From assembly GCF_000003815.2 (NCBI RefSeq), contig NC_049980.1, positions 27,592,762 through 27,656,761 of the forward strand: a DNA stretch of 64,000 nt. Direction: 5' to 3'. A program made the translations under genes and the position numbers. The stretch's first letter is position 1, and each line of letters starts with the position of its first letter. Of this stretch, positions 2,446 to 33,351 are shown one piece after another. The notes beneath the pieces were generated by a model. That model was not told the origin of the DNA. It saw nothing but the letters and a program-made list of their open reading frames with translations, and ran no database searches. This stretch comes from Branchiostoma floridae (taxonomy: Eukaryota > Chordata > Leptocardii > Amphioxiformes > Branchiostomatidae).

Positions 2446-5400
2446 TTAAGGGACTTGGTCGTGAACTTCGGGAGTTTTGCCTGGAGACACTACCGCCTTC
2501 TTGGGATATTTCTTCCAGAGAACGAACGCGCCGATTGCCATGGCCACGACCAGGATACCACCCGTTGTTCCAAGGGCGATAGGGATGGTGTTGGCGTCTC
2601 CGCGTTGGGCGGATTCCGTTGGTGCCTCTTCCGATTTAGACGTCGTTGAGGGAGTCTTGGAAGGGTCAGATGGTTTAGACGTTTCTTTTGTGTAACCGGT
2701 CGTTTTAAATGCGGAATTATGTGAGCTGTCGGTTATCGCCGGTAAAGTGGTCTCGTCTTGGCCACCTGTCATAAGAACTGTGCTCACACTGTCGGTGTAA
2801 GATTCAGTTGTTGGCATGGCCTCGGTCGTAGTTACTGAAGAAAAAAGAGTTGGGAATGGGTTTTTATAGATGCCATAGATATCGGATGTCTAAAAAAATA
2901 ACGCTCGAAAGAAATGTTTCCAAGAGTGATGGCCACAACATTTTTTTTTACTCACAATTTTCAACAGCAGTAAGGGTCAAGTTGTCAATGCCAAAGTTTG
3001 GCAAGTCGGGAGGATTCGAAGTTCCTTCAATCACGACCTGAGGTGGTAGAAAGTACTAGTAGATCAAGGTTCGCATGTTGATGTAGTGCACAAAGGTATC
3101 ATGAATTCTAACGACATTGGTCAAATAGAACTTATTTACAATAAGTGCAATGACGTTAGATACTCAACACAATGTTTTTAGCACCACCTATATATCGAGT
3201 TTATAATCCAATCAAGATAAAAACATTTGCAGACGGGATGTTGTTTTTTTGACAATGAAAAAAAACTTCGTATCTGAATTCACTCACTTTGTAAGGCCCT
3301 GGCTGCACCACGCCAATTAGTACATGTTGCCATGGGGATAGGAGGTCAGAGGTTGACCAAAGCAGTCGCTCTGTACTAGTCTCGTTCAACGTGAAGACAT
3401 TGAGGTATGTAGAGTTGGGCGGCCTGACTGTTCCGACGGCGAAGCTCATCACTACAGGGTGGGTCGTGTTGATGGCCGGGCTGGTCAGTCGGGCTCTGTC
3501 CGTGCCTACAGGCAGACTCTCCAGGTGGAAGCACATGTACCTACCGGGGGCTGAAACAATCAAGCGTTGAGAAAGTTCAGAATGTTGTTTGATTTGTTTA
3601 ACAGCAGCAGATTTCATTGACTCATCATCATTCATAGGAAACAACTGCACTGTACGAAAAGTATGCATATGATACACAAGAGATAAAGAAAATAGTTGTG
3701 GGCATTATTTGTATACATTTGTACGTCTACATTTCTATTTTTCTTTTCCACAAACAGCCCAGCCTGGCACCGGTTTGGAAATCTAACATTAGCCTATTAT
3801 AAATTTTTAGTTAGTACGTTAGAGACTTGACTCTCCCCAAGTCATGCCTAAACAAACCATCAATCAATTTTATGATGGAGGCTGAATAGCTAATGTTAAA
3901 GTGCAGCGATTAAGACGCCAGTAAAAGTATTTTTCTCACTTGCATTTGGTTAACAGTGTCTGTGAGCAAAATATGCTCACAACTACAACTAACAAACTTT
4001 TATAATATTTTATACATACCGGTAACACCCTGAAGTGCATCGTTTGGCCACCCGTGATCGCACACACCCGGACCCATGTGGTTGACTGGGCCTTCTATGG
4101 CCCAGCCGCAGACATCAGCGTCAAAAGAACATCCGTACTGGTCACCGAGATTCAGGTCAACTGTCAGAGAACACAAGGAAGGAATCATGACATCGAATTA
4201 TGAGCTCCACAATAAGCGGACGGTTGCAGAAAAGTTTAACGTGTATGAAGTGTTCCTGCCTTGATTTTTAGGTTTGGTAAAAATTCACACCGGCCTCCGA
4301 TCTGTCAACTTTCAGGAACGAAAAGTGCAATGGAAAAGTAAGCAACAAGACACTCAAGAAATTAGTCATAAGCATAATTTGTATATGTTTTTGCTTGATA
4401 AACACCTTTTTTCCGTTTCTGCAAACATTTCAGGCAGGCCTTGATTCGCGGACAAATGGCCGTAGCATAGCATGCCGTTCCGCCAAACAGTACCTCTTTC
4501 ACGTCGTATTTTGCGTCCTACTATTAAGTTAGGACTCCACAAAGTATATAGAATCCTTTTAATTATTTCCACGTCGTATTTATTTGGCGTCCTATTATTA
4601 AGCTGGGATTTCACAAAGTGTAAAACGCTTTTTGCCTGAAGGCAAAACACCTTTTTTCCGTTTCTGCAAACATTTCAGGCAGGCCTTATTTCGCGGACAA
4701 ATGGCCGTAGCATAGCATGCCAAAGTCTGGATTAGTCACTTACCTCAACCATACATATCTACTTCAAATTCAGCAAACATTTGGTAGATTTAAACTTCAC
4801 ATCGAGAGTTTTATAGTGTTGTTTTCAACGCTATAAAATTTTAACACATACTAGTTGGTACGTGGCACTAGTTGGGCTACCAAATCAACGATGACTGTGG
4901 GATGCCCCATTTCAGTCATTTTACGCTTGCTGCCGTTTCATAAAAAATTGATTATACATAAATACTATTATATAATTTCGCAGTTGAAACAACATTGAAA
5001 AATGATGGTTAAAATCGACAAAGAATAAAAAAAAAATCTTTTAAAATGTCATCGAATTTAGAGTAAACCTAGACGCAAGGAGGCTTTGATTCAAGTAAAA
5101 CGTTTTAACTGCCAACAAGGACTCATAGCATTGACTCATCTTCTTGCGCAACTTGAAAGGGTGTCATAGGAAATCTACCAAAACCTGCTTAGTATACAGA
5201 CAGATAGAGTCAATTAATCAATAATCTCCAAGCAGATCCTACGATGGCATAAGATAGTCGTTTAGTTTGATATAGCCAGCTGCTGCCGCACCGCGTGCAT
5301 GCGAAGCTGGTGTGTTACGCCGAAGGGTGGTTATACCGAATATATAGATACAGATACAGATAGATACAGAAAGTACAAAACTGGCCAAGACGTGTAGTCA

Positions 5401-5604
5401 ACCAAGAGATGTACATTTGCCAAACACACTCCTAGGCCGGCTTCACTCCTGTGGCAGCTTTTGATACTATCTTATGCTACCATAGGATCTGCTTGGAAAT
5501 CAATATTGACCGCCATGCGTCAAGAAATTCAGATCATACTCACTTGAAGCAGTTGAGACGGCAAACCACGAGAACAGGAGAAGAAATGACGGCGAAAGCT
5601 TCAT
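2446..5604 (-). CDS. MAM gene A: MAM-domain, mucin-stalk, single-pass membrane protein (311 aa)
   Basis: Exons (minus strand): 5604..5544, 4160..4020, 3550..3288, 3037..2956, 2834..2446; the lengths sum to exactly 312 codons and every junction is GT-AG. Exon 1 is a signal peptide (MKLSPSFLLLFSWFAVS). Exons 2-4 form one MAM domain of about 160 residues: DLNLGDQYGCSFDADVCGW, then VCDHGWP, YMCFHLE, SFAVGTVRPP, SPWQ, and the closing VVIEG/PNFGIDNLTL strand. Exon 5 holds a Thr/Ser-rich stalk, a membrane span (TIPIALGTTGGILVVAMAIG) and a short basic tail (LWKKYPKK). Known: MAM domains mediate extracellular adhesion or oligomerisation. Inferred: type I plasma-membrane protein; ligand unknown. It is the most downstream member of six tandem paralogs. 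Intron 1 contains a local duplication and a small inverted-repeat element. Confidence 0.85.
4401..4721 (+). repeat. Local direct duplication, 76-bp unit in intron 1 of gene A
   Basis: A 76-base segment (starting AACACCTTTTTTCCG, ending AGCATAGCATGCC) occurs at 4401-4476 and again at 4646-4721, nearly identical. A second short motif (CACGTCGTATTT... GCGTCCTA) is also doubled between them, so about 245 bp was duplicated in tandem and then diverged. Confidence 0.8.
5223..5500. mobile_element. MITE-like element with about 35-bp terminal inverted repeats
   Basis: The left end (5223-5258, CCAAGCAGATCCTACGATGG core) and right end (5466-5500) are inverted copies differing at a few positions. TCAATA flanks both ends, as expected of a target-site duplication. 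The 278-bp interior has no transposase and carries a sub-repeat (5305-5369) also found at about 41 kb and 49.3 kb. It lies in intron 1 of gene A. Confidence 0.75.
5305..5369 (+). repeat. Dispersed repeat copy 1 (AGCTGGTGTGTTACGCCGAA core)
   Basis: The stretch with core TGTTACGCCGAAGGG, a palindrome-prone GGTTATACCG, then ATAGATACAGATACAG reappears inverted at 41007-41066 and in degenerate direct form at 49297-49346. An interspersed element core is likely; the family was not recognised. Confidence 0.65.
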
Positions 5605-5685
5605 GACGGAGACGGATTCAGCTACGCTTCCTTTTTGTATCTTGATGTGACAAAATGATCTCATGCCGACCTTGTACGTATGGCA

Positions 5686-5761
5686 TATATATAACATTAG
5701 AAACCCTAAACCTAATACGCCACAAAGTACACACTCTAGTTAGAAAAGGTTGCTCAGCAAT
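5686..5761 (-). promoter_or_regulatory. Promoter of gene A: TATA box plus X-box-like inverted repeat
   Basis: TATATATA at 5686-5693 lies about 85 bp upstream of the ATG. GTTGCTCAGCAAT at 5749-5761 lies about 145 bp upstream. The latter is an inverted repeat of a GTTGCY half-site with a one-base spacer, resembling the RFX X-box (known consensus GTTGCC/GGCAAC half-sites). Equivalent elements occur in front of the other cluster members. Confidence 0.55.
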
Positions 5762-5829
5762 TTTCATTACAGCGATAAAGTTAATGACCTCTGGGTACTT
5801 AAAGTGTTTGTTAAGGAGACGATAAATCG

Positions 5830-6992: not shown

Positions 6993-9900
6993 TTAGATAT
7001 TTAACGGATTATCCTGGGTATACGTCTCAGGAGAAACTACTGGTTTTCTGGCGTACTTCTTCCAGATAGTGAACGCCCCGATTGCAACGACCAGAAACCC
7101 ACCCGTTGTGCCGACGGCGATGGGAACGGTTTGGGAGCTAGTCACACCGCCTTCTCCACGCTGAGCGGATTTTGTTGGTTCCTTTTCTAAGTTGGACGTC
7201 GTCGAAATAGTCTTGGATGGGGTTACACGTTTGGTGGTCTCGTCTTTGAGCGTCGATGGGGGAAAGTAGCTCGTCGCTTTTGGTGTAGAATAAACAGGGA
7301 TGACGCTTGTTGTGCCCTCCTGATGAGTAGTTGAAGGAGGGGTACCTGTTGTCTTCGTTGTTGGAACTTTCGTCATGCGTGTAGTTTCACTCTTACCACT
7401 CGTCGTAAGAACAGTGCTCGTATCTGTAATGTTAGTGATAGGTACGGTGTTCTCATCATGAGCTATAAGATAAAGACATAGACAAAATATGAGCGCCGAA
7501 ACAGACGTCAGATATTTACGTGTTGTCTGTCGATGTATCGGGGAGAGGTTTGAAATCGAAGATACCTCAGGAAGAACATATGTCCGTATGTAACTCACCA
7601 AAATCAGTCGCAGTGATCGTGAAGTTGTCAATACCAAAATTTGGGAGGAATGGTGGATTTGGAATCCCTTCGATCACAATCTGAAATGAAAGGCAAAATT
7701 CATAAACACTGAATGCAAACAATGAGGAAAGTTTTGTAAAAAATACATTTCACGGCACATATTTCCACACACCTAGTGAGTGGTATCCACACAGATCTAC
7801 GTTTACTTATACACCTACTCACTTTGTAAGGTCCAGGCTTCACCACTCCCACTTGTACGCGTTGCCATGGAGACAGGAGGTCAGAGGTCGACCAAAGCAG
7901 AGATTCCGTTCCGTTCATCATCACCAAAAGTACGTTGAGGTATGTCCCTGTTGGCGGCCTGACAGTGCCGACAGCAAAACTTATCATTACAGAGCGAGTT
8001 GTGTTGATGGTTGGGCTGGTCAGTCTGGCTCTGTTCAAACCTGGATACATACCGGGCAGATGCTCCAGGAAGAAACACATGTACGCACCGACAGCTGGAA
8101 GAAACAATACAATTGCAAGTTTAGCTAAGTTTTACATGGCATGTAGGAAACTTTAGGGCACATAAAGTAGACTATTGGAAATGTGTAATATCGTACTTGT
8201 AATCCATGCATTCGTCCTCTGTCATTGTCTTGATACACCAACCCGAGGTGAAACCAGTGGACGGCGTACCAGATCACACAACAAACTGACCACTATCAAT
8301 GCCAGAACGGAGCGGTATAAGAACAGTACCATTCCGCACATCGTCCGACTACTGATCTCATGAACTGTGTTACCTTTGCTTTAACTGTCGATTTTACCGG
8401 TCAACCCAATGTATATATTGTAATACGTTTGATAACTGTGAACGATTTTAAATGGACGTCCTTGTTATTAAAGTATCATGTGAGTACAAGAGCAATCCAG
8501 GGCCGACTTTTTGAGTCCTGCTATTCTGTACACTTTTAATGGACCAAATAAACCATTATTATTATTACATAATTGTTCATAAATACATGTTCAAACTAAA
8601 CAGGCTAGGCATCCACGTATGGTATATGGTTCCCAAAATTCGGTATACGTTGCCAAAAAGGTTGGGAAAACTAGGTACATTTAATAGCTGCTTAAACATT
8701 ACTTGTGTCACTGCGATGCCAACAACTGAACAAACAAACCTGTCACGCCACCTACTCCATCATCTGGCCATCCATGATCACAATACCCCGGTCCGTTGTG
8801 TACAGGGCCTTCTATCCCGCAGCCACAGACGCCGGCGTCAAACGTGCATCTGTACTGGTCAGTGGTGTCCAGGTCGACTACAACAGGGAAAAATCAACTA
8901 TATCAGAACACTATTTCATTAGGCCCCCATTCCACTTGACGGCGCTCTCACCGCGCTCTCACGGCGATGGCAAACTTGCCCCATCGCCGTGAGAGCGCCG
9001 CGATGGCAAAAAAAGCTGCTCTAGTGGAATCTCTCCTGCGACGTCAGCGCGCTCTCAGCGCGACGGAAAACTCAAAGGACAGCAATTTTTATGGGCTGCC
9101 AAGAACTTTAAAGATTACTCAACGAATTTCAGAGATAAAGAACGAGATTTCTTACCTTTTGTGTATTTTATTGTATTTCAAGTCATACTTTTACGTCTTA
9201 CGTAATTTTAAATTACAAAATCAAGGCTGTAAACAAATCCAATTTTGCTCACTGTAGAGTCGTTCAGCTTGACTTGCTGTTTTTTTTAAATTAAATTTGC
9301 CATGTAACTTGTTCAAAATGAATATCATTATCATGCCAGGTTATTATCGTAAATTATAGAATAGTGAAACGATTTGATCTATTGAAAATAAGTCTTCTAT
9401 AATCTCAATCTACAGGTTAAGAACATGAAAACTAAAGTGTTATTCTGTTAACATTTAAAAATAAGCATAATAAACCTTTGTGTTCTATTCTATCTCAATT
9501 TAATTCATTGTACATTTTCTCCGAGTTCTTTCTCGTCAATTTGTGTTATATCTAATCCTGTGACTCGAAACGCTGAATAAAGCACCGTATGTGTAGTTGT
9601 CCAATTTGTTTAACCCATGATTTTATTAGGAAGTGATTCATGACACAAAAGTATGATTTGACAACAAAATTCATCAAAATATACTTCTTCAAGAATAAAG
9701 ACTGCATGAACTATAGTTGAGAGCGCAGCGAGAGCGCGGTAAGATCGCCGTCCTAGTGGAATGGGGCCTATTATATACCATTGTTTAGCCCTATTGGCGC
9801 TCACCGCGCTCTCTTGGCGCTCTCATGTCGCTCTCACGGCGCTCTCACGGCGATCATTGTTGCATCGCCATCCTCGGCGCTCTCACGGCGATGGTATGGC

Positions 9901-11648
9901 AGGGCTCCATACCATCGCCGTGGTGACGGCGCTCTCGCCGCGATGGCACTCCCGTCGCGATCTCACGGCGCTCTCACCGCGCTCTCACCGCGCTCCCATG
10001 GCGACCTTGGCGATCCCACCGCGCTCTCACCGCGATGGTCAACTTTGCCATCGCTGTGAGAGCGCCGCGAGAGCGCCGTCCCAGTGGAATGGGGGTATAA
10101 CATAACGCTATTCACTATTGACAGAACTAACAGAATACAACTGCCAGGCAGTTTCCTACTTTTTTTTTTCTTGTTCATGCTTTTTGATAATCATTACAGT
10201 CCTTATCTCTTGGCCATTACAGTCCTTATCTCTTTGCAATATTTATCAAACCCATATTGTCGAGACATTGTGAGACCAGTCGCAGTTCTTCGGAAATATG
10301 ACTTAATTATTTCGTAGGTGTTCTTGTTGACTCCGCCACAGCTAATTGTCTGCCAGCCAGAGGTAGTCTATTATGCTCATAAGCCACCCCTTCTACTTGA
10401 TGGCTATCAATAAGTGACAATAGGTCATTAGTCAACAGCCAGAAATGTCATCATTGCAAGTATCTGATTCCTTACATTTGAGGAAACAATGTTTGTTCTC
10501 ATCGTAAGAATCAAGTGTCGTTAACTACTCTATTTTCCCCCGAGCGCTAAGATTACCGACTGCAATATTGAACAGATTTACAGTACATTATTAATCTGCC
10601 ACCTAATAATGAATTTATTTACCTGAAGTGTCAGATTTACTCGCCATAAGTATTCCGACTTAATTTCAGCAAACCTTTGATCGAGATTTAAGTTTCGTCG
10701 TCGAGATTTTTATGAGGCTGTTTTGAACGCCATAAAATGTTCCTCCCCCTTCGACCGCAGAGAGACCAAAGATTGATAAATGAATTCCATTGATAAAGAA
10801 CGGCTTTAAATTTTGTGTATTTTTAGATCATCCTTTATTCACATTGCATAATGCTCCAATTATAGAATCAATGGTAGCACAAATGCAATTTAGGTCGCTG
10901 TACGGTCGCTCAGCAATCGTCGTATGGCGGAAAGGTGGTCCAAGCAGAGCACAGGGGGACTATTCAGAATGACGAAGCACTCCACTTTTGGGCGCATAAG
11001 TTTAAGGCTTTTCGCTGCGTACCACGATCACACTAGCCAGTAGTCGATCCATTAGTCTCTACGAGACTCCAAAGTCGCTGGAAGAATCGTAGAAATGGAA
11101 CAAACAGTGGAGCAACCGGCCAGATAAGTACAGCCGGCTAGGAAACAGCGCGCTACCTAGCCGACTGTACACCTCTGGCCGGCTTGCTCCTCTATTTGTT
11201 CCATGTGTACGGTTTTCCCAGCAACCTATGAAGTCTGGTAGAGACTAACTATCCATAGCAGTATACAGGCACACATTGACTTCGTGTTTTTCATCTTAAT
11301 TTGAGATATTCAGCCTATAGTAGGTTAGGTTCAAGATCGACAATGACAATGTTATAAGAACTCATCCAACGTCAGATCGAATTGGCGTCTTTCTTAGATT
11401 TATAGGAATACATGTTTGTCGTAAGATCGGGGCTTGAATTTAACTACAGGAAATGTAAATTGAATGATTCAAGAAACGTTTAAACGATGCTGGCAACTAC
11501 TAAGTAACTTTGAATTTGGTATGGAAGAAGAAATACATACATGTACACAGACATGCTACACGATAATAGTATAGAAGACAGGCTTACTTGTAGTGGAGGT
11601 GACGGCAATCCATGAGAACATGAACAGGAACGATGATACATGCCTCAT
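6993..11648 (-). CDS. MAM gene B: MAM-domain, mucin-stalk, single-pass membrane protein (340 aa)
   Basis: Exons: 11648..11588, 8877..8740, 8094..7823, 7680..7599, 7462..6993, totalling 341 codons in frame with GT-AG junctions. Signal peptide: MRHVSSFLFMFSWIAV. The MAM domain runs from DLDTTDQYRCTFDAGVC to PNFGIDNFTI. The usual Trp after the second Cys is replaced (VCGCGIEG), giving an extra cysteine. The stalk is rich in Thr, Ser and Pro (about 100 residues). The membrane span is VPIAVGTTGGFLVVAIGAF, followed by a basic stop-transfer IWKKYARK. The 3' part resembles gene A, while the promoter, exon 1 and MAM exons are nearly those of gene C, so B and C are a recent duplicate pair. Intron 1 holds a 1.2-kb transposon cluster and a 108-bp hairpin. 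The extracellular role is inferred from the domains only. Confidence 0.85.
8909..10098. mobile_element. Non-autonomous TIR element(s) rich in GCGCTCTCAC/GATGGCGAT repeats, intron 1 of gene B
   Basis: Inverted ends CCCCCATTCCAC (about 8925 and about 10093) are followed by inverted arrays of GGCGCTCTCAC. Further internal copies of the end (about 9033 and 9757) suggest nested or composite insertions. The paralogous site in gene C (about 15955-15975) reads CAGAACATAACATAACGC with nothing inserted, so the insertion postdates the B/C duplication. No transposase frame is present. The interior near 9110-9200 matches the interior of the element at 23.3 kb. Confidence 0.75.
11096..11203. repeat. 108-bp near-perfect hairpin in intron 1 of gene B
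   Basis: The sequence starts TGGAACAAACAGTGGAGCAA and ends with its inverse (TTGCTCCTCTATTTGTTCCA); the arms contain GGCCGGCT/AGCCGGC motifs and the loop is a few bases. A diverged but still paired copy is in the same position of gene C (16868-16977). It could be a foldback MITE or a structured intronic element. Confidence 0.75.
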
Positions 11649-11744
11649 GGCGGAAATCTGCACGGTACCGCGGAATGCAGAAATGCAGCCTACTAGCTAC
11701 AGACGTATTGGTCGCATGTATGGAAAAGCCCCGGTGTGCTCATA

Positions 11745-11791: not shown

Positions 11792-11799
11792 TCTCTAGT

Positions 11800-12508: not shown

Positions 12509-15500
12509 TCAAATTTTCTTTAGATGTTCGTATATTGCTGGTTTTAAGTCTTGATAGACATTCTCTGAATCTTGGTGTGCTGGAAGGCTATCCATGGGGA
12601 TGTCGTACAAGGGGTTTGAGGGAGACTGGCGGGGGCCACCTGTACCGTTTACATCCTCGTATACCTCCGAAGCTTCTGAAAGAAAACGAAATGACAGTCA
12701 CAATTATTCATCTCAATTCTATGCTAACGAAATGGAATAGAATTGAAGCTTTAACCTTGAAAGTGGACAACGGGTCATGTAATGCATTCTTCTTCTCCAC
12801 CGTACCTAGGCTTGTCATTCATGAGTTTGCGAAGCTCTGCTGTGCCATGTGGTGATGTTATTGAGTTGGGAATCATCTTTAAGTTTTTGTCAAACATTAT
12901 GTAGAATTATTCATCAGTTTACACAATGAAAACCAACAGGCTTAGCTTCAACACAAACCGCATTGTTGGACTCATCACATGCAAATTGTGATTTATTAAT
13001 TCTGACTCACCCTTATAAAAGAAAGACATTCAATATATATTACATCATAGCTTCGCCTTATACTAATGGTAGATTTAATCAGGGCACAGAAATCAACACT
13101 GGTCGTAAAAGTAGATACATTTAAAGATTATGATAATTAGCGGAATAGATATCATTTTAACATGTCAAATATTCCTATTTTATTGACGAAGTAATGTATG
13201 TCCGAAGATCACCGATTAAAAAATGAAAAACAAAATGTTAAACAAAACATTTTAGGGCCCATTTGGACACCATTTCTGTGGGTTAAGAAACTTTGATTGC
13301 TGCATCAACTCGCCTTTTCCATTCCGAAGACGATGTACCAGAAGCGTTGCTAGAACTCCGACCACGGCACCTACAGCAGCGGTGGCTATAGCGATGCCTG
13401 CACTGACTGCGGGGTCGACGCCTGACCCAACAACAGGGTTTTTATCGGGAGAAATCGTGGCCATGTGCAGACATTCCGTTCCCACCGGTGGACAAGTAGC
13501 AGCGCATGTACACCCTGTTTCACTCTCACCTCTTGTTGTAAGAACTGTGTTCGTATCACCAATGTTAGTCATAGGTATGGTGGTCTCTTCATGAGCACTG
13601 GTTGCAGAAACGACGGTCATATCTTCGCTAATGGTGGAAGGGATGGTAGTAGGTATGATGGTCTTTTCTTGAGTTCTTGTTGTGGGAAACGTGGCGTCGT
13701 ATTGGCTCCGTGTCGTAGGAACTGTACTTACAATCTCATGTGTTTGTATGGTCTCGGTCGTGGTAGCTACAAAATAAAGACATACACTATAGATGAGCGC
13801 GGAAACAGATGTCAGATATTTACGAGTTGTCTGTCGTATCGAGGTACATGTATATAGGAGAGATATGAAATTAAAGATACATTAAGAAGAACGTAAACAG
13901 TTCTGTTACTCACAAGAATTAGTCACTGTGATCGTTAAGTGGTCAATACCAAAATTTGGGAAGAATGGCGGATTTGGAATCCCTTCGAACACGATCTGAA
14001 ATGAAAGTCAACCAAGTTTATGAACATTTGCATACCATATTTTGTAAAAGAGACATTTGACAGCACATATTTTCACACATCTAGTGAGTGGCTTCCACAC
14101 ATATATACGTATACTTGTATACATTCACTCACTTTGTAAGGTCCAGGCTGTGCCACTCGTACTTCAACTCGTTGCCATGGAGAGATAAGGTCAGAGGTCG
14201 ACCAAAGCAGAGATTCTGTTCCGTTCATCGTCACCAAAAACACGTTAAGATATGTCCCAGTTGGCGGCCGGACAGTGCCGACAACAAAGCTTATCATTGC
14301 TGAGCGACTTGTGTTGATGGTTGGGCTGGTCAGACGGGCTCTGTTCAAACCTGGATACATACCGGGCAGATGCTCCAGGTAGAAACACATGTACATACCG
14401 AAAGCTGAAAAAACAGTACAGTTACAAATTTAACTAAATGTTTTCCTGTCGTAAATTTGAAAATATGTTAACTTATAACTTAGAAATCGATAAATCATGC
14501 ATTCTACATCTAAATACAGTACATATTTGTCTATACACGTGATTGTTAAAAAAACGCATACATAATCTAAATCTGAGAAATTCACCTATCATGGTACGTG
14601 GTTTCAAATATGAAAATGTGTTGTCCGAAAATTTGGGACTGCTAGCGAGTATCTATTAAAACATTACTTGTGTAACTGTGATGGCAAATCTCAAAGGAAA
14701 CTATTCAACCGACCAGTCACGCCATATACTGCATCATCTGGCCATCCATGATCACACCGCCCCGGTCCGTTGAACACCGGACCTTCTGTCGTACTGCCAC
14801 AGTAGCCGGCGTCAAACGTGCATCTGTACTGGTCAGTGGTGTCCAGGTTAAGCCCCGGTCACAAAGCGCGTACGATTCCTTGCGATGGACTATTCCGCAT
14901 ATCGTACGATGAGCGCAGTACATCGCAAGAAAATCGTAAGCATCGCAAGCCATCGCAACGCATCGGATGGTGTTCAAAATTTTTCCAGCGTCGCACGATT
15001 TTTCACTTGTGTCTCTTCTGTATAGCCGTCTGACCGCTTTTGTGCTTCTTTAACCAACAAAATGTGGACATAGCTGTTTAATACCTTCCTATAATATCTT
15101 TAACTGTAAAAATAAATTTAAAAAGACCATGACAACAAGAGTATTACAAGCAAAAGTTCAAATCAAGCGTGAGTACTGGTATGGTTATCTCGGTCTGCTT
15201 GCCGGCTCTACGTGTCAGGCTCTTTCGAAGATCGTCATGATCATGATATGCTATCAACAAAAAGATGCCATCATACAAAAATCAAATGATAAGAATTATA
15301 TCATATATATTTCCGACTCATAGAGCCTGCCTTTATGTTCGAGTTGTCCCCATGGTTATTACGATTATGGTAAACTGACCCAAGACCGACGAGAGCTGAG
15401 ATTTGATCTAATTATAAACTCACGTGCATGAGGCGATCAAACAATTGTCTGCATCACCTGTGCGGGGCGCGCTGTTCTCTGGTTGCGACTGTGGCAGTTG

Positions 15501-17434: not shown

Positions 17435-17532
17435 GACGGAAACCTGCACAGTACCGTGGAATGTTGGAAACCGCTGCCTACTAGCTACAGACGTATTGGT
17501 CGTATGTATGGAAAAGCCCCGGTGTGCTCATA

Positions 17533-22200: not shown

Positions 22201-24747
22201 GACTGACGAATCGAGCTTTGTTGGTGCCCGGAGGCAGGCCCTCCAAGAAGAAACATATGTATTGGCCGGAATCTGTGAAGATTAAAAAAAGAAATTGTAG
22301 ACGCCGAGCAGTGGCAGAATGATGATATTGATAAAGTTTCATTATGATATACTAACTATGGTACCAGATTTCTACACTAACGAACACAATTCACAACTAG
22401 AACCATTAAAACATTCTAATAATGACAAGGTCACACATGACACTTTAATCGGATAAAGGTGAAAACTACATGGCCATGGTCCCCTGGTCTAAGACAAAAT
22501 AAAATACTGTTTGATATCATTACTAAAGAAAGGGTTGGTAAGAATGATTAGACTTGTGTAATATCCGTACCGCGATAAGTGAGCAAATTATGTTCGTATC
22601 ATGGATTACATCACTGGTGTACATATTCAGTGCTGTTAGTTCGATCGCGCGAATATAATAAAGCGTTGAAAAACACTATGTTTAATGTCAAGCGAAATTG
22701 TTCGACGTTATACATGTATGTACATACCCGTAGATCCATTGAGTGCATCAATTGGCCATCCATGGTCACACCCGGCCCCGGATCCATGGGAAATTGGACC
22801 CTCTATAGTCCAATCGCAGACATTAACGTCAAGAGAACATCCGTACTGGTCCGTACTGTCAAGGTCAACTATGGAGAACAAAGGCACGAAAAACAAAAGA
22901 CTGAATGTATTGGCAATAGAACTGGTATCGAATTTCAAATTGGTATGCTATATTGTACCTTATTATGTAAACGTATTCGTGTATGTGTCTTGGGACAGCT
23001 GACAAAAAGGTCAAGGGACCATTGAGTGCATATACTGGTAAAGTAATAAAATGTGACAATAGAGAACTAGCTTCCATCTGCTAATACCTTATTGTGCGAT
23101 AAATCCACAAGACATTAGTCTACAAATAATGTCACTGTTTAATGTTATCGGTCACGTACACATTGATTTATTCAGTTGAGGTTTACTAATGTGGCTTTAA
23201 TCATTGCTTAATTAAGGGGTAGAAGTTCTCTTATCGTTTTATTGAGCTGTTTTTAAGGCAATAAAAGTCCAACTTACTCGCACAAGACGGAACTTGGTAC
23301 TGTCTCAAGTAGGTAAAGGTGCACTCTCACTGCAATTGCGTCAAGCTTGCGTCAATGCGGGGTTTGAAATATACTCAACGAAATTCAGAGATAAAGAACG
23401 AATTTTCTTACTTTTTGTGTATTTTGCCGTCTTTAGTCATACTTGTACGAATTACGCAATATCTCAATTATAAAAAATCCAAGAAAATAACAAAACAGTG
23501 ACACAGTAAACGAACCCCGCAGTGACGGAAGCTTGACACAAGTGCAGTGAGAGTGCACATTTAAGGGCCATGTTCTATATATGTTCAAGCTTGATGAATT
23601 TTGATTAGCATTCACCAAAACAAACAATATGTTATACATTTCTTGTGTCAATAAAGATTTCCAAAATAATATACAAACGAAAATCTACCCTGTACATACC
23701 CTGGACATACAATACTGTCAATGAAAACCAGAAATCTTTGGGCAGATATTTCATTTCTTTCTGAAATGTCATAGGGGAGGGGACTATACGTATTTGAGTT
23801 AAATGTTATTTCTAAACCGCAAATGATTGATTAAATTTAAGAATTACTTAAAAAGTGACAAGTTAGTACTACGCAAGGTTGAAAAACAACAACAATAACT
23901 AGAAAATTAAGTAAATGACTGGTTATTTACTACGTACGTTTTGGGCAAGTTCTTAAAGATGGATTTCCTTTACATAAGATTGTAATAAGCCATTCCAAAT
24001 CTGTGGGCATCTGAACAACATGGGAGAACATCCGTTTCTGGGATTTGTTTCGAATTTTTCTGCTGTTTTGTACTGTACTGATGTCTGAGTGATGAAAATT
24101 TTAATTGTAGTTAAAATACATTCGATTTTATAAATTGGGACTATTGTTAGCTATTTTATGGACGGATTTTGTAGCTCGTTAATATCGTACATAGTCATTA
24201 GTCATTCGACATTAGTCATTTTAGAGTGCGAAACAATGATGCAGAGGGGGGGGTGTGTAGGAAATATTGGAAGCGATTCGAACAAATATTTTCTGCCGAA
24301 AAAAGTAGTGGTTTTAGAGATGTTGAGTATGTAAATTTTATTTTATAATAAGCTAGACGACGTTAAAGTGGTAACTTTACATAATACATGTGTTTGCTGT
24401 GATACGCTTTGCTTTTTTGTGAAGAAATTTTTAAGAAAAATATACATTACAAATCCATGAAACTGATATCGCATCTGATAATATCTTTAATGATAATAAT
24501 TTTGATGGCTCTAATGACTGAGCAAAATAATGATTCAAACGAATTTCTAACGACTGTTCTAGTCTTTACAGTACACATACTCGGAAAGTCAAGTACCCAT
24601 TTCCAACATCATGGGTATGTGGAAAAAATTAAAGATATTTTTCGCATTCATTTCAATTATTAGATGTAGCTGTAAGTCGTACTTACTCAAAGCAGCTGCG
24701 AAGATAAACCACGACAACAGGAGGATGGACGCTAGTGTAAGTCTCAT
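19289..24747 (-). CDS. MAM gene D: short-stalk MAM membrane protein (262 aa)
   Basis: Exons: 24747..24687, 22868..22728, 22272..22010, 21676..21595, 19530..19289; 263 codons, frame kept throughout. Start chosen at 24747 because it gives the 61-bp first exon shared by the family; two in-frame ATGs (24750 and 24774) lie upstream, so the signal peptide (RLTLASILLLSWFIFAAA) could be longer. The MAM domain runs DLDSTDQYGCSLDVNVCDW to PNFGIDDLTL. The stalk is the shortest of the six, about 40 residues. Span: IVLVPIVLGSAGGLLIVGLG; basic anchor LWRKYVRK; tail ends EQSTSP. The last intron (about 2 kb) is filled with two CRE-motif-rich transposons; intron 1 carries a MITE. Confidence 0.85.
19709..20655. 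mobile_element. TIR element 1 with CCCTATTCAGACCGGG ends
   Basis: The left end CCCTATTCAGACCGGG (19709) and right end (20640-20655) are inverted copies, each flanked by TTTA. The interior near each end is also inverted (GACGTCCTATAAC-type sequence). No transposase. It lies in the last intron of gene D. Confidence 0.75.
19901..21395. promoter_or_regulatory. Cluster of nine perfect TGACGTCA (CRE) motifs inside the transposons
   Basis: TGACGTCA occurs at 19901, 20050, 20061, 20074, 20312, 21001, 21216, 21229 and 21388. Chance would give about 0.02 in this length. CCAAGATGGCGG-type (YY1-like) sites recur alongside at about 21020 and 21200, with inverted forms near 20289. Whether these act as regulatory sites is not shown by the sequence. 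Confidence 0.5.
20661..21480. mobile_element. TIR element 2, directly abutting element 1 (right end unclear)
   Basis: It begins CCCTATCCAGACCGGGGGG immediately after the TTTAA that ends element 1, and shares subterminal sequence with it. A matching outer right end was not found; the last related sequence is near 21480, so it is probably truncated. Confidence 0.55.
23314..23563. mobile_element. 250-bp MITE with about 45-bp terminal inverted repeats, intron 1 of gene D
   Basis: The left (GTGCACTCTCACTGC, then GTCAAGCTTGCGTCA) and right ends are imperfect inverted copies over about 45 bases, with TAAA/TTTA at the outer borders. The middle (ACTCAACGAAATTCAGAGA, then AAAGAACGA) is shared with the 8.9-10.1 kb element, so the two are related. 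Confidence 0.75.
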
Positions 24748-24831
24748 CATGATGACGACCAACAGAATAACCACACAGAAAATCAGTAAGTTCCAGATAG
24801 ACTAATGTGACCGTGTGAACCGGGATACGTT

Positions 24832-25050: not shown

Positions 25051-25548
25051 ACGCATTCGTGCTCTTATCATCTAGATGTCTGGCTTAAGGCGGCGGTGGC
25101 CCAGTAGTTCAACTGACCAGGTGGTAAATGAGTACATGGTACGTGCTTGATTGTTTGTAGTTAGGGCTGACTGTTGGTCAATGCCAACTGATTGCGGTTA
25201 CTTCAAAGGGGTAGTCTGTCTGCATTGCTACGTACATGCTGGACAAGATATATATGATAGTGCTGGTGTCTCTAAAGAATAATAATTACATTGCTATGCA
25301 ATACATATAAGTGTTGACGAAATGTCTAGATCGGGTTTATTCAGTTAGATTAAATTAAACAACACAAGCTGTTAAAGTATCAGCGTCCGTAGTAACATTT
25401 ACTTTTAAGATTCGAAGCAATCCTTCAGCTCTTCATCTTCACCGCACAGTTCAGCGTATATTTCAAATTTCTCACTCCGTTTTGCATAGATAAAGACATC
25501 TGAGATTTTGTCTATCCTCTCTATTTTTCATTGGTTGTTCATGCGCTG

Positions 25549-28372
25549 CTAAGTCTTGATACTCGCTGAATCTTGGTGTGCTGAAAGGCTTTCCATAGGG
25601 ATGCCGTACAAGGGGTTTGAGGGATTCTGTCGATGACCAGCTGTACCGTTTACTTCTGAAGCTTCTGCAGAAAACAAAATGACAGTCACAATCATTAATA
25701 GGCTAAAGGAATTGAGTAGAATTGAACCTCGAACCTTGAACGTTACCATTGGGGATGTCATCACGGGTCACAGGGGGTTCTGTTTAATAATCTTTCCACA
25801 CTTGTCCTTGTCTTGAGTGAGCGAAACTCTGTTGTAGTTGCACTCTACTGTGTAGTTGCTGAGTTAGGCATCCCTTTTCACGTTGTTGATGAAGCTTGTG
25901 AAGAACTATTCACCAGTTTATACGATGAAAACCAACAGACTTAGCTTCAACACACACCGCAATGTTTGACTTTACAAATTGTGGTTAAATTCATCGTGTC
26001 CCTTGTAAAGGAAAGACATTCAATCCATAAAATCATCCCAGTTACGTGGTTAATTGGTAAATTGGTAAATTTAACCAAAGCATATATATTATCATTGGCC
26101 CCAAAAGTAGGTACATCAATTGAAGGAGCCATGATGATTGCACCAACTTGCCTGTTCCATTCCGAAGACGATGCACCAGAAGCGTTGCCAGAACTCCGAC
26201 CACAACACCTACAGCAGCGGTGGTGATAGCGATGCCTGCACAGACTGCGGGGTCGACGCCTGATGAAGACCTGGAGGACGCGACAACAGGGTCTCCATGG
26301 GGAGAATTCGTGGCCATGTGTGGAAATTCCGAGCCTACCGGTGGGCAAGTGTTAGCGCATGTGCATCCTGTCGCCACATCTGTTGTCGCTGTAAGAAATT
26401 ACATCAAGAAAATTTGTTTATCCCAACATCCACATATGCAGTCAAGCAAGGAAAAAAATTCGAGCCATAGGAATTCCTGACTGCCTGATTATCATAACAT
26501 TTTTAAAGGGACTTTACGAATTACGTAAATGAAGGTTACGTCCATATACGTAACGTTGCTTTGCCTAGTATTCAAACCTTAATACCTGTAGAAAGAAAGG
26601 TAGACGTGCCTTGAATACTGGCTGTAGGCACTGTGGGCGTATTGTTACTGGTGGCCATCGGCAATGTGGTCACTTGCTGACCACTAGTCTGGGGAAATGC
26701 TGTCGCATCCTGACCACCAGCAGTAGGCGTTGTGGTATGGACTTGACCACTGGTCATGGGACGTGTGGTGTTGTATTGCCAAGTTGTCATGGGGACTGTG
26801 GTAAGCATCTCTGTGGAACAATTAGTCGTCTGTACCCCCACATTCGCAGTAGCTGGAAAAGTACACATGCCGGTATTCAAATACTGCCAAAGTTGTCAGT
26901 AAAAGGATGGAATTTTGTGTTTGAAGAGGAAAACGTATTGAACAACAAAATTATTCTCACCATTTTGAACAGCCGTCAGTGTTAAGTCGTCGATACCGAA
27001 GTTTGGGTAGAAAGGAGGGTCGGGAATACCTTCAATCACAATCTGAAAAAGACAAGAAATGGTTATTAAGGCGTTAAATATTGAACCTTATGTGGTTAGA
27101 CAACAAAATTATATAGAGAACTATTGCCCTACTAGAAAGACCAAGTCACATGGATATTCCATTACAAGGCGCTTGACAAGACAATGAAAATACTAACACT
27201 CACTTTGTAAGGCCCAGACTGCACAATACCAACGTATACGCGTTGCCATGGAAAAAGGAGGTCAGAGGTTGAACACAGCAGCGTCTCCGTACCCGTCTCG
27301 TTCACCAAGATGACGCTAAGGTACGTCGATGTAGGAGGCCTCACGGTGCCGATAGCGAAGCTTAACACCACGTGGTGGGTAGTGTTGATGTTTGGACTGG
27401 TAAATCGGGCCCAGGTTATATTTGGAAAATTGGTCGGCATCATGTGTAAGTCGTCCAGAAAGAAGCAAATGTACATGCCAGGAGCTGTAAGAAGATATAA
27501 ACGTTTACTTTCATGTCCCACAATGGTAACGATTACATAAAGCTACTCTCCTGTGTTTTGATTGTTAAATTATCAGGAATAAGAGCTCAAAACTTTAAGC
27601 CACACAGGCAGCTAGATATCATTTAATTACTGAACTTTTGTCAATAGTAAGGACATCCATACTAAAAATGTACGTGTAAAAATAGGGGATAAAACAGGTA
27701 TAAACCTACCGGTGACGCCATGAAGGGCTTCATCTGGCCAGCCGTAATCACATCCAGCCGCTCCTCCATGGTACACCGGGCCCTCTATTGTCCAGCTGCA
27801 AATGCTACTGTCAAAGGTACATCTGTACTGGTCAGCTGCATCCAGCTCAACTAGATATATCAGCACATAGATAGGAAAGAAAAAATGCTATATCAGACAA
27901 TTAACTTGATATTTGGTAATGTTTATAGGGCTTAATCTCAAATCAGGACATTGTGCAACGTGTATAATGATTTATCGTTTGATATCCCGAGGCGCCATTT
28001 TCCCTCCCTGAAGCTGACGGGGATAACTTTAAAGTGTATGCTATGCAGTTGTTTTTACACCAACAATGAGAACGAGAATTGATTCATTGTGTAAAACATC
28101 GCAAATGAGTAGCAATCGTTATATTATTAGGTATTATATCTAGATATTTGCATATGTAATGAAGACTGAAACGGCAGGTAACTTGCCCCCGTTCACGTCA
28201 GTACCTAGGTCGAGCCAAGTTTTCGAAGCAATAGGTTTAGTATACTATGGGACTTTAACTGCATTTTCCGGCGAAGATAATAGAAAGCACGTAGGTTCAA
28301 CTTACTTGAAGCGGATGTGAAGACAAACCACGGATACAAGAGAAAGAACGGCACCGATGGTGTCAGCTTCAT
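25549..28372 (-). CDS. MAM gene E: MAM-domain, mucin-stalk, membrane protein with truncated NPLY tail (396 aa)
   Basis: Exons: 28372..28306, 27850..27710, 27484..27204, 27042..26961, 26852..26586, 26388..26152, 25664..25549; 397 codons in frame. Signal peptide: MKLTPSVPFFLLYPWFVF. The MAM domain is complete with Trp kept (ICSWTIEG). A Thr-rich stalk of about 90 residues has its own exon (TTRPMTSGQ, TTTPTAGGQ). The next exon has a Cys pair motif (TGCTCANTCPPVG) and the span AGIAITTAAVGVVVGVLATL. The final intron is predicted GC-AG (ACAG|GCAAGT to CTGCAG). Without it the frame runs to 26042 with a hydrophobic end. The tail exon gives NPLYGIPM and stops at IKT where gene C continues with VYQDL, because of an apparent 4-base deletion. 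Confidence 0.8.
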
Positions 28373-28495
28373 TATGACCACCAAAAACTTACATAAAAAA
28401 TTGTGTCGTACTTAGTATTGCCTCTTTTACGTATACCGGGATACCTCACGGCAATGTAGCCAACAAGTCACAGCAAATCACACTGGCCTTGACAA

Positions 28496-28536
28496 CTTGC
28501 TTAGCAGCTATCAGTGCCATAAATCATTAAGACACA
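28496..28536 (-). promoter_or_regulatory. Promoter of gene E: X-box-like element
   Basis: CTTGCTTAGCAGC (28496-28508) lies about 124 bp upstream of the ATG and is followed by the TATCAGTGCCATAAATCATT context shared with genes D, F and the orphan exon. No clear TATA box. Confidence 0.45.
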
Positions 28537-28539
28537 TTT

Positions 28540-30053: not shown

Positions 30054-33000
30054 CTAGAACTCTGTTAACTCGGTCTGAGTTAGAGTCATCCTCGATGCCC
30101 TTCGCGATTCTTCTACAGAGAAACTAGACCTCTTCCGTTTCTTCTTGAGGTAGAACATGGCGCCTGCCGCTACCAGGAGGAATACTGCTATCCCAAGCAC
30201 GATGGGGAGGGCGGTGATGTCCGGCTGGCCGGTGCGTCCGCTCTGCTGACCAAGCTGACCATCTTTGGAAGGTGTGGACGTGGGGAGAGGTTTTGTTGCT
30301 GCCTCTCCTGATTTAGTAGTCTTGGCAGGAATTGGACGTTTGGTCGTTTCTTCAGGGGGTGATGGCTTGGATGTGGGACTCTTGGAGATGCCGCTTGTGG
30401 TCTTGTCCTGACTGGTTGTCGAACTAAAGTGGTCGGTTGCTTTCGTTGTTGGCATGTTGGAGACGATGCGTGTGGTTTCCTCCTGCTTACTAGTCATAGG
30501 GAGGACCGTCGTATCCTGACTAGTTGTCATGGGCATTGTGGTCGTATCATGGCTACTCGTCATGGCTAATGTGGTCGTATCATGGCTATTCGTATTGGAC
30601 AATACGGTTGTATCATGACTACTTGTCATAGGTAGCATGGTCGTGTCTTCACTACTCGCCATTGGTAATATGGTCGTATCTTGCTTACTTGTCATGGGTA
30701 GTATAGTCGTATCATGGCTACTTGTCATAGGTAGTATGGTCGTTTCATGGCTACTCGTCATGGACAATAAGGTCGTATCTTCTCTACTCGTCATGGGCAA
30801 TATGGTCGTATCTTCTTTACACGTCATGGGTAGTATGTTCGTATCTTGACTACTCGTCATGGGCAGTATGGTCGTATCTTGACTACTCGTCATAGGCAGT
30901 ATGGTCGTATCATGGCTACTGGTCATTGACAGTAGGGTCGTATCATGAATACTTGTCATTGGCAATATGGTCGTGTCTTCCCTACTCGTCATGGACAGTA
31001 TAGGCGTATGGCTACTCGTCATACGCCGTGTGGTCGTATCTTCACTACCTGTGGTAATTGTGGTCATATCCTGACTAGAAGTAGAAGTCTCAAAATGTAT
31101 GGTCGTGTTTTGACTAATGGTCATAGGATGTGTGGCGTTGTATGAACTACTGGACATAGCAACCGTAGTCACAATCTCAGTTGAACATCTATCAGTTATC
31201 TCTACACCCAAGGCCGCGGTTGCTGGAAAATGAAAGATTTAGCAATGCATCACTACTGGAAAAGATTTTAAGAAAATATCAGTCTAGCGGTCAAAGTATA
31301 GTTAAGGTTTTCTTACAGACTTTATCGAGATTTTCAAATTTGATACAGAAATTAAATCGCGTAGCAGAATGTTACTCACCATTTTCAACAACTGTCAGTG
31401 TGAAGTCGTCAATGCCAAAATTCGGATAGAAGGGTGGGTCTGGAACCCCTTCGATGACGATCTGAAATGGTTGAAAAGTTATCAATCGTCACATATTAAA
31501 ACGTTACTTGGTATCAATGGGAATTTAACAAAAAAGTCAGAGACCCAACATGTGGTAAACAGATGCATCTAGAGTGAGACACTCACGTTATAAGGCCCGG
31601 GCTGCACTACACCGATGTAAATACGTTGCCATGGGGACAGGTGGTCAGAGGTCGAACACAGCAGCGTCTCAGTGCCGGTCTCATTCACCAGGATGACGTT
31701 GAGATATGTCCCGGTTGGCGGCATGACGGTGCCGACAGCGAAGCTCATCACCACTTGTTGAGTAGTGTTGAATGTTGGGCTGATAACTCTGGCTCTCTCA
31801 ACGGGAGCTATCTCCAGGAAGATGCACATGTACTCACCATCGGCTAAAAAAGGCAAAGCGCTATTTAAAAAGCAAGTTCGACCCAGTAACGTTTAGTGTC
31901 TTCAGATTGGCAAAAAAATACAAATTAAATGTCATCGTGTTTACTGTTAATTTTTGGCAGTAAGAACATAGAATATTTCTTTATTTAGATTTTTCAGAGT
32001 GAATGGGAGGGCAAAACAGGTACAAACTGCACCTTTGAAGGCTGCCCTCCCGTACATAATAAATATATTCATGGCACAACATTACATACAATAACACAAT
32101 ACAATAATATGTACAATAATAGCGGAAAATGACATACAAAATATACAACCATTTGGCAAAATCATTGTACTAACTAGCGTGGTCTTGATGCTATGCAAGA
32201 ACTGCAACCACAGCAAGTGGTACAGGTACAGGGAAGATCGATACAATAAATGGTACTAAATCTGTTGTATGTAGCCTTCAAAAGTTTTCGTTTAAATGGT
32301 GTTACGTCAAACTGTTGTGCTGCTAACTTACCAAAGCAACACAGGTCAGCAGTAAACTTATTCCAGATCACCAGTCTGGGAATGTACGTGTGACTGAATG
32401 CTGACGTCTTAGAAATATTGGGACGTTCTTGCCTGGATGATAATCTGCATTTTCACGCAGTCGTTAGAAATGAACTAGAAAAAGTTTCATCCTAATGTTG
32501 AATTATAATGGTTTAAACTTTTAATGACTTAAAAAACGCTTGAGGTCGCTAAAAAAAGGAAAAGAGGATTGAAAGTATAATGTATTTCATATACCAACCA
32601 GTAACGCCATGCATTGCATCAGTCGGCCACTCGTGATCACATCCCCCTGAGCTATGGGCGACTGGGCCATCTATATTCCAACCACAGATACCACCGTCAA
32701 AGCTACATCTGTACTGTCCAGAAGCGTCAAGGTCAACTAACAAAGGGAAATGAAAAGATGGATGTATTAGATATCAAATTAGTCTATGCTAAATATTTTA
32801 GCAAAGTAATAGCGTTATGATATGGCAAGCTACAATTGTAGTTTGCAGTTCTAGTAACTTGATAGTGGTAGACGTTAAGATCTTTAAAAGAAGTTATCTA
32901 GCCTTTGACAAACTTAGTAGACAAGGTTTGTACAGTTGAAGTCGTTAACGATCTGTAACAGTTGAACATAAAAATCTTCAAATAAAAAAAGTCATCCTTG

Positions 33001-33351
33001 TATACAGCACTGTTAGTATACCATGGTACCTCTGACACTACGAAAAGGATAAAGTAGATGTGACAATGCAACACATCTATGTCAGTAACTCAGACATATT
33101 TGTCCAGTTGAGGTGTTGCTATATTGATTATTGGGTTTAGTGACAACCTGTTAACCATCTTTTGTCCAATAGTTTGAAAAACTAAACATTGTGAAGGGTT
33201 TCAGAACATACGTCGTAGATTGGCCAATACAAATTATACTTCACGTCAAACACCAGCACGAGAATATGGGGGCATATACATTGTACTTACTTGAAGAGGC
33301 AGTAAAGGCAAGCCACAAGCTCAAGAGCAGAGTCAATGATACAAGCCTCAT
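30054..33351 (-). CDS. MAM gene F: MAM-domain protein with long repeat-built mucin stalk (568 aa)
   Basis: Exons: 33351..33291, 32736..32599, 31843..31587, 31461..31380, 31222..30054; 569 codons, all GT-AG and in frame. Signal peptide: MRLVSLTLLLSLWLAF. MAM domain: DLDASGQYRCSFDGGICGW to PNFGIDDFTL. The last exon encodes about 16 imperfect copies of an 11-residue unit (consensus DTTILPMTSSH), then a Pro/Thr-rich linker, a membrane span (ITALPIVLGIAVFLLVAAG), a strongly basic anchor (KKKRKR) and a tail with possible basophilic kinase sites (RKRSSFS, RRASRMT). A dense Thr/Ser stalk implies heavy O-glycosylation (inference). It has the longest ectodomain of the cluster and lies at its 5' end. 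Confidence 0.85.
30470..31015 (-). repeat. 33-bp coding minisatellite in gene F stalk
   Basis: About 16 tandem 33-bp units encode DTTILPMTSSH-like peptides. Units differ by a few bases (SMTSRE, PMTCKE, SNTNSH variants), all keep frame, and none contains a stop. Confidence 0.85.
31985..32440 (-). mobile_element. 3' fragment of a non-LTR retrotransposon in intron 2 of gene F
   Basis: A minus-strand frame ending at 32174 contains SHTYIPRLVIWNKF followed by an F(D)VTPFKRKLLK stretch. This resembles the C-terminal end of LINE reverse transcriptases (a FPR..WN pattern). Downstream is a short 3' region with AATAAAG. There is no catalytic domain; it is 5'-truncated. Confidence 0.5.

What the first reader, a model, noticed from the sequence alone, without database searches (positions are those of the whole stretch)
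2446..33351. Six-gene tandem cluster of MAM-domain, mucin-stalk membrane proteins with fixed architecture but variable stalks and tails
Seen: six adjacent same-strand genes share signal peptide, one MAM domain, Thr/Ser stalk, one membrane span and identical intron phases. The MAM part is conserved, while stalk length varies from about 40 to over 300 residues and the tails fall into at least two types. Known: MAM domains serve adhesion or recognition. Inference: a lineage-expanded surface-receptor family with diversifying display height and signalling, perhaps in recognition or epithelial defence. I know of no described family with exactly this plan.
Basis: partly seen in the sequence, partly recalled or inferred. 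Interest (0 to 1): 0.8.

Follow-up and report, generated by a model that had tools for sequence, protein, structure and literature searches.

The report
Six MAM-on-mucin-stalk receptors, swappable tails
A probable lancelet chromosome carries a private row of six genes for cell-surface proteins that hold one adhesion-type domain out on a probably sugar-coated stalk; one of the genes is a hybrid whose tail end comes from a neighbour, and that tail resembles a tyrosine-bearing tail found on quite different receptors in the same genome.

Summary
Six minus-strand genes (2446-33351) share signal-peptide exon, three-exon MAM domain, Thr/Ser stalk and membrane span; five of six splice cleanly with phases 1-1-0-1. 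The MAM is divergent: 2 of 6 pass Pfam's cut-off. The family looks private: all 18 matches of a whole-genome search lie here.

New findings:
(1) g4 is a mosaic: MAM exons like g5, membrane/tail end like g2.
(2) A missed exon: in g2 and g4 an apparent GC-AG intron leads to a tyrosine-bearing cytoplasmic exon. The same cassette ends two fibronectin-III receptor genes elsewhere; a tail search gave 27 matches, 11 at E<=0.01, including both query genes and g4.
(3) g4 exon 2 is interrupted by a recent TTAA-flanked transposon, and g2's tail is truncated, so neither tyrosine-tailed gene is complete here.
(4) g1's stalk is a 33-bp repeat array.

MAM evolution looks purifying, not diversifying. Function is inferred: adhesion/recognition receptors in signalling and short-tailed versions. 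No transcripts or other species' genomes could be examined.

The parts
30054..33351 (-). gene g1: exons 33351-33291, 32736-32599, 31843-31587, 31461-31380, 31222-30054; 568 aa; longest stalk (344); type C tail (...KKKRKRSSFSVEESRRASRMTLTQTELTEF)
30508..31048 (-). 33-bp tandem repeat, 16.5 copies, 77% matches, coding the 11-residue T/S repeats of the g1 stalk
26042..28372 (-). gene g2 as first modelled: exons 28372-28306, 27850-27710, 27484-27204, 27042-26961, 26852-26586, 26388-26152 (type B membrane exon; reads on to 26042 if the GC donor is unused)
25549..25664 (-). g2 inferred last cytoplasmic exon after a 487-bp GC-AG intron (donor AG|GCAAGT after 26152): EASEV...NPLYGIP..., truncated relative to g4
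19289..24750 (-). gene g3: exons 24750-24687, 22868-22728, 22272-22010, 21676-21595, 19530-19289; 263 aa; shortest stalk (41); type A tail
13252..17434 (-). gene g4: exons 17434-17374, 14852-14714 (acceptor destroyed), 14404-14133, 13995-13914, 13766-13314 (type B; reads on to 13252 if the GC donor is unused)
12509..12675 (-). g4 inferred last cytoplasmic exon after a 638-bp GC-AG intron (donor AG|GCGAGT after 13314): EASEVYEDV...NPLYDIPM...VYQDLKPAIYEHLKKI, four tyrosines
14852..15916 (-). transposon of about 1.07 kb with 37-42-bp terminal inverted repeats, TTAA on both sides, sitting in the first bases of g4 exon 2
13517..13518 (-). g5-like / g2-like junction inside the g4 stalk exon (exon nt 249/250)
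6993..11648 (-). gene g5: exons 11648-11588, 8877-8740, 8094-7823, 7680-7599, 7462-6993; 340 aa; type A tail
2446..5604 (-). gene g6: exons 5604-5544, 4160-4020, 3550-3288, 3037-2956, 2834-2446; 311 aa; type A tail; best Pfam MAM score (39.8 bits)

Best explanation
This is a private tandem family of type I membrane proteins. A divergent MAM head is held away from the cell on a presumably O-glycosylated Thr/Ser stalk and anchored by one membrane span. The head is kept constant while presentation and output vary. Stalk length changes by repeat gain and loss. The membrane-plus-tail end can be exchanged between paralogs by unequal crossing-over or exon shuffling within the stalk (one clear case, g4). 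Type A and C genes carry short basic tails and would act as adhesion or display forms. Type B genes carry a tyrosine-bearing tail that would be phosphorylated by Src/Lck-type kinases and dock SH2 or PTB proteins when the head is engaged. Shown here: gene structures, domain identity, privacy of the family in this assembly, mosaic g4, tail cassette shared with other genes, transposon break. Inferred: GC-AG splicing (no transcript), glycosylation, ligand binding, phosphorylation, tissue and immune role.
For: Gene structure: five of six genes open with the same phases. MAM: Pfam 39.8 and 31.9 bits for g6 and g4; the profile hits the MDGA1 MAM at 5e-9. Privacy: 18 of 18 matches at E<=0.05 in the cluster, 20 of 20 candidates scored; no copy in 50 kb upstream or 30 kb downstream. 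Mosaic g4: aa identity to g5 is 0.82 in MAM and 0.18 in tail, to g2 0.60 and 0.71; MAM tree groups g4+g5 (support 100), tail tree g2+g4 (100); 338 informative sites split 112:17 (g5-like:g2-like) then 37:172, reached by 0 of 20000 shuffles; junction inside the stalk exon. Tail: the same cassette on two FN3 receptor genes, including the GC donor sequence; g4 tail against the C11 tail 46% identical, E=6e-18 for that single comparison; 27 genome matches, 11 at E<=0.01, of which two are the query genes and one is g4. Tyrosine signalling exists in amphioxus: BbLck phosphorylates an LRR receptor (PMC8211107, passages).
Against: No transcripts, so splicing through the GC-AG introns is unproven; unspliced, g2 and g4 would end in short tails without these tyrosines, and g2 would have a second hydrophobic stretch. 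Of the two type B genes, g4 has the full tail but its head is interrupted by a transposon, and g2 has an intact head but a truncated tail with one tyrosine, so this assembly holds no complete signalling member. Only one mosaic was seen among six genes. The tyrosine pair is spaced YxxL-x4-YxxL, shorter than a classical ITAM (recalled consensus). Nothing here shows a ligand. The MAM head shows no sign of diversifying selection. AlphaFold on exon 3 alone was uninformative (pLDDT 53.7).
Confidence: 0.55

Rival explanations
1. Structural glycocalyx family: the genes are membrane mucins whose MAM head only anchors or spaces the mucin coat; tails are incidental and stalk variation is neutral repeat slippage.
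For: Four of six genes have short tails without tyrosine motifs of this kind; the g1 stalk is a simple 33-bp repeat; neuropilin's MAM has been read as part of a spacer (PMC8155012, passages).
Against: The MAM is kept under purifying selection with many invariant residues, and the type B tail is a conserved cassette shared with other receptors.
Confidence: 0.25
2. Decaying array: an old tandem family now in birth-and-death decline; the mosaic, the truncated g2 tail and the transposon in g4 are debris rather than a mechanism.
For: g4 broken by a recent transposon; g2 tail frame truncated against g4; g4/g5 dN/dS 0.46 overall, the highest of the 15 pairs, and 0.68, 0.31, 0.91 by MAM exon.
Against: Five of six genes have intact reading frames and splice sites up to the membrane exon, and dN/dS is low in the other 14 of 15 pairs.
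Confidence: 0.2

Closest known systems
Class C scavenger receptors (Drosophila SR-CI)
   Same: Type I membrane proteins with a MAM motif, insect pattern-recognition receptors (PMC4493455, passages); a mucin-like Ser/Thr stretch is recalled, not read here.
   Different: Class C receptors have a CCP region before the MAM; none is found here, and no exon was found between signal exon and MAM.
Zonadhesin and zonadhesin-like proteins
   Same: MAM domains next to mucin repeats; zonadhesin has one membrane span and a short tail (PMC1325057, passages).
   Different: No VWD, TIL or EGF domain found here; one MAM only; far smaller.
Schistosoma SmPoMuc mucins
   Same: Multigene mucins with variable numbers of 9-residue repeats and mosaic paralogs made by recombination (PMC2576457, passages).
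   Different: No MAM head or exchange of a signalling tail appears in the passages read. Analogy of process only, not kinship.
Amphioxus immunoreceptor BbLcLRR
   Same: Lancelet receptor with three tyrosine motifs, phosphorylated by Lck (PMC8211107, passages).
   Different: Ectodomain is LRR; the motifs quoted (DDYATV, HDYSEV, HDYDDP) differ from YEDV/YDIP/YQDL/YEHL.
Two FN3-array receptor genes at C11:4.90 and 4.92 Mb of the same genome
   Same: Similar membrane exon, same GC donor sequence and phase, similar last exon with YEDV, YDIP, YQEL, YEHL.
   Different: Ectodomain is a row of fibronectin type III exons (Pfam run on two exons of the first gene; the second looks alike), no MAM seen.

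Membership tests
MAM domain (Pfam PF00629) | Profile match above curated cut-off | tested here: inconclusive
   Over cut-off in g6 (39.8) and g4 (31.9); 25.7, 24.3 and 21.9 bits in g5, g3, g2 against 26.4; no hit in g1. Family profile hits the MDGA1 MAM at 5e-9.
MAM domain (Pfam PF00629) | N-terminal Cys pair (CxF(E/D)..C.W start) | tested here: met
   Both Cys invariant in 6 of 6; the Trp after the second Cys is present in 4 of 6 (not g4, g5), the Phe in 5 of 6 (not g3).
MAM domain (Pfam PF00629) | Second disulphide (Cys before the SFYYHMYG strand and Cys after the DDI strand) | tested here: not met
   First of these Cys is absent in 6 of 6 (Val or Met there); the aligned MDGA1 residue is Cys, as in MAM exons of other loci of this genome. 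No Cys within 20 residues after NFGID in 6 of 6. Place of the canonical pair partly recalled; two disulphides in the meprin MAM read in PMC9848320 (passages).
MAM domain (Pfam PF00629) | Three-exon layout seen in MAM genes of this genome, middle exon near profile 40-132 | tested here: met
   Exon 3 runs GxY(M/I)...GPY(K/N) in 6 of 6; 77 of 150 listed genome rows start at 34-43 and end at 128-136.
Class C scavenger receptor | CCP domains N-terminal to MAM | tested here: not met
   No CCP hit (E up to 1); signal exon is followed directly by the first MAM exon in the gene models.
Class C scavenger receptor | Phagocytosis / pattern recognition | not testable with these tools
   needs experiments
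Zonadhesin | VWD domains | tested here: not met
   No VWD hit in 6 of 6.
Transmembrane mucin | Thr/Ser/Pro-rich extracellular stretch beside one membrane span | tested here: met
   Stalk T+S 32-40%, P 7-9%, one strong span by hydropathy apart from the signal region (g2 has a second stretch only if the GC-AG intron is not spliced). Glycosylation itself not testable.
ITAM receptor | YxxL/I-x6-8-YxxL/I in the tail | tested here: not met
   g4: YQDL-KPAI-YEHL, spacer of 4. Consensus recalled.

The most novel reading that the evidence does not exclude
The cluster is one visible part of a combinatorial receptor system in lancelets: a portable cassette (membrane span, GC-AG intron, four-tyrosine tail) is joined to different ectodomains (MAM-mucin, fibronectin-III arrays, PAN), and within families the mucin stalk serves as the recombination site that lets a fixed head be re-paired with signalling or silent tails and with different reach.
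Probability: 0.3. Interest if true: 0.75.

Novelty: new variant of a known kind. Interest (0 to 1): 0.5.

Why it matters
If right, it gives a compact, testable case in which receptor heads, reach and output evolve separately. Six neighbours share one conserved head, differ eightfold in stalk length and carry three kinds of tail, one of them resembling a tyrosine cassette on unrelated receptors. Lancelets are reported to gain domain pairs unusually fast, with promiscuous domains spread mainly in 1-1 phase exons (PMC4284660, passages; the word MAM does not occur in its main text); here a junction is seen inside a stalk exon.

Tried and rejected
Considered and rejected: one large multi-MAM gene (each unit has its own signal exon, span and stop); chance low-complexity similarity (18 of 18 protein matches in the cluster); rapid positive selection on the head as a whole; tails with no signalling content (no sign of any in A and C, contradicted for B). 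AlphaFold on exon 3 alone: pLDDT 53.7, not used further. Pfam on pieces of the C192 gene carrying a weaker tail match gave no family, and the ectodomain of the C14 gene was not identified by eye (no Pfam run). The g4 tail has no relevant relative among solved structures (one hit at E=4.8). A search for relatives of tail A did not complete; none was made for tail C. The NCBIfam scan failed and was not repeated.
Full report
Setting. The window is G000:C2:27592762-27656761 of a 513,431,437-base assembly in 431 contigs. From size and chromosome-scale contigs I take it to be the Florida lancelet, Branchiostoma floridae; this is recalled, not shown by a call. No relatives of this genome could be searched.

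Checking the observation. tblastn with exon pieces found six copies of the first MAM exon and six of the middle MAM exon, all on the minus strand. Splice borders were placed by hand and checked by script. Five of six genes give open proteins with intron phases 1-1-0-1. The cluster bounds 2446-33351 are exact. Gaps from stop to next start are 1.3-1.9 kb, or about 0.8-0.9 kb after g2 and g4 if their extra exon is counted. Stalks run from 41 to 344 residues with 32-40% Thr+Ser. The g1 stalk is a 33-bp tandem array of 16.5 copies at 77% matches.

What the head is. Pfam MAM scores are 39.8 (g6), 31.9 (g4, read from exon 2), 25.7 (g5), 24.3 (g3) and 21.9 (g2) against a cut-off of 26.4, with no hit for g1. 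The whole-genome Pfam search reported 151 matches and listed 150, none of the listed in the window; exons were scored singly and 150 of 546 candidates were scored, which may be why. The profile of the six heads matches the MAM of MDGA1 at E=5e-9; the only other hit, an SR-C-like protein, is at 0.36. Four cysteines are invariant (C11, C18, C33, C53 of the alignment). The cysteine before the SFYYHMYG strand of MDGA1, also present in MAM exons of other loci of this genome, is Val or Met here. I infer that the second canonical disulphide is lost and that C33-C53 may replace it. g1, g2 and g3 also have a cysteine in (L/V)CSTSD together with one 21-22 residues after NFGID, at the stalk's start; g4, g5 and g6 have neither. 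That is a possible extra head-stalk disulphide in half the family, though with six related genes it may only reflect ancestry. A fold of exon 3 alone was too poor to test any of this.

How far it extends. A g6 head search of the whole assembly gave 18 matches at E<=0.05, 20 of 20 candidates scored, and all 18 are the three MAM exons of the six genes. Flanks of 50 kb and 30 kb hold no further copy; L009 holds a canonical MAM gene instead. So this is one array in this assembly, as far as that search sees.

Selection. Nei-Gojobori dN/dS over the MAM is 0.14-0.35 in 14 of 15 pairs and 0.46 for g4/g5 (dS 0.24); dS is 0.92-1.70 in the other 14 pairs, so those ratios are rough. By exon g4/g5 gives 0.68, 0.31 and 0.91, which looks relaxed. 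Overall this is purifying selection and gives no support to a diversifying head; site-wise tests were not run.

Mosaic g4. g4 and g5 are tandem duplicates: 82.3% over 685 bp through two MAM exons and introns, and 81.6% over 1.9 kb upstream. Inside the g4 stalk exon, nt 172-250 match g5 (83.5%) and nt 249-466 match the g2 membrane exon (81.1%); the first part resembles g6 and g1 stalks weakly. Protein identity flips accordingly: MAM 0.82 to g5 and 0.60 to g2, tail 0.18 and 0.71. Trees disagree with support 100 on each side. A split test on 338 informative sites gave 112 g5-like to 17 g2-like before and 37 to 172 after, reached by 0 of 20000 shuffles; the stalk part of that three-way alignment is weak, and its split fell at the start of the stalk exon rather than at the junction. 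One mosaic among six genes shows that exchange has happened, not that it is frequent.

The missed exon. Downstream of g2 and g4 the DNA stays alignable (68.9% over 649 columns). Both have a GC donor (AG|GCAAGT, AG|GCGAGT), a pyrimidine-rich AG acceptor and matching phase 1, joining an exon that codes EASEV...NPLYxIPMxSL. Over 33 codons the g2-g4 differences by codon position are 2, 4, 7, a weak coding signal. Nucleotide identity is 0.86 in the exon, 0.80 in the heavily gapped intron and 0.61 after it. g4 has four tyrosines (YEDV, YDIP, YQDL, YEHL); g2 keeps one and ends early. The stronger support is the match to other genes, next.

The cassette elsewhere. The type B membrane exon matches C11:4922350 and C11:4901447 (E 4e-9 and 8e-9), C233:34923 (0.003) and C14:8521867 (0.06), besides g2 and g4; 6 of 6 candidates scored. 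The C11 genes have rows of fibronectin type III exons (Pfam run on two exons of the first gene), the same GC donor sequence, and a last exon ending YQELRP(A/T)VYEHLRKK. The g4 tail is 46% identical to the first of these over 56 columns, E=6e-18 for that single comparison. C233 has a PAN-like domain and Thr-rich stretch; its donor was not resolved. The C14 gene shares YEDV, YDMP, YQEL and YEHL. A whole-genome search with the C11 tail gave 27 matches at E<=1, 31 of 31 candidates scored; 11 are at E<=0.01, two of them the query genes and one g4; g2's shorter exon was not listed. The weaker 16, ten of them on contig C192, may include chance or distant matches. Of the eight stronger matches outside the two C11 genes and g4 I looked at two (C233: PAN; C14: unidentified), and of the weaker ones at one C192 gene, whose pieces gave no Pfam family.

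The transposon. The stretch before g4 exon 2 is repeated genome-wide: 38 of the 41 matches lie outside the cluster at 98-100% identity (40 of 618 candidates scored). Four copies match over about 1.07 kb at 97.5-99.3%, with 37-42-bp inverted ends. TTAA flanks both ends, and the outer flank reads ..TTGTAG|TTAA, an acceptor and the first exon bases. So the insertion looks recent, and g4 looked like its sisters before it. Skipping exon 2 would keep frame, because both its borders are phase 1, but would remove the start of the MAM.

Reading. The safest statement is a private family of stalked MAM membrane proteins. Beyond that, head, reach and output vary separately, and one output end is a cassette shared with other receptors. 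I think an adhesion/recognition role with signalling and non-signalling members is most likely, at about 0.55, with a plain glycocalyx role as main rival. The strongest point against is that neither type B gene is complete in this assembly. BbLck phosphorylating a lancelet LRR receptor (PMC8211107, passages) shows that tyrosine signalling is plausible in lancelets, no more. A lancelet phagocytic LRR receptor works with Grb2 without any cytoplasmic tail (PMC10199209, passages), so short-tailed forms need not be silent.

Literature. Ten full-text searches of the open-access library showed no paper on this family in their listings, several of which were capped; subscription journals and databases of predicted proteins were not searched. 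Of the papers cited I read passages only.

Noticed in passing
34873-36960 (-): Next gene on the same strand: exon with a somatomedin B domain and a secretin-family seven-helix region, 1.5 kb before g1.
   Followed up: partly
L048, L050 (C11:4.895-4.925 Mb): Two neighbouring genes of many FN3 exons ending in a membrane exon, GC donor and four-tyrosine-type exon like g2/g4.
   Followed up: partly
C192:108150-367039: Ten weak tail matches spaced along one 376-kb contig, perhaps a tandem array; the one read (209 kb) has several hydrophobic stretches and an open frame with YQELRPAVYQSL; ectodomain not identified.
   Followed up: partly
L053 (C233:30000-39999): PAN-like domain plus Thr-rich stretch and membrane span followed by an open frame with YDVP and YQELRPAQYQGL.
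   Followed up: partly
L009 (C2:27548392, 27550436): Canonical MAM exons on the opposite strand about 42 kb from the window; the middle exon read keeps the cysteine that the window family lost.
   Followed up: partly
window g1, g2, g3 versus g4, g5, g6: A cysteine in (L/V)CSTSD and one at the start of the stalk occur together in g1-g3 and are both absent in g4-g6: possible head-stalk disulphide.
   Followed up: partly
9806-10034: Two arrays of 11-bp tandem repeats in g5 intron 1, in a stretch without an alignable counterpart in g4.
   Followed up: no
42889-44727 and 46845-47222 (-): Pro/Gly/Gln-rich 612-aa open frame without a Pfam hit and a sub-threshold CREPT match nearby; possibly an RPRD-type gene (name recalled). 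A run of unknown bases lies between 44.7 and 45.1 kb.
   Followed up: no
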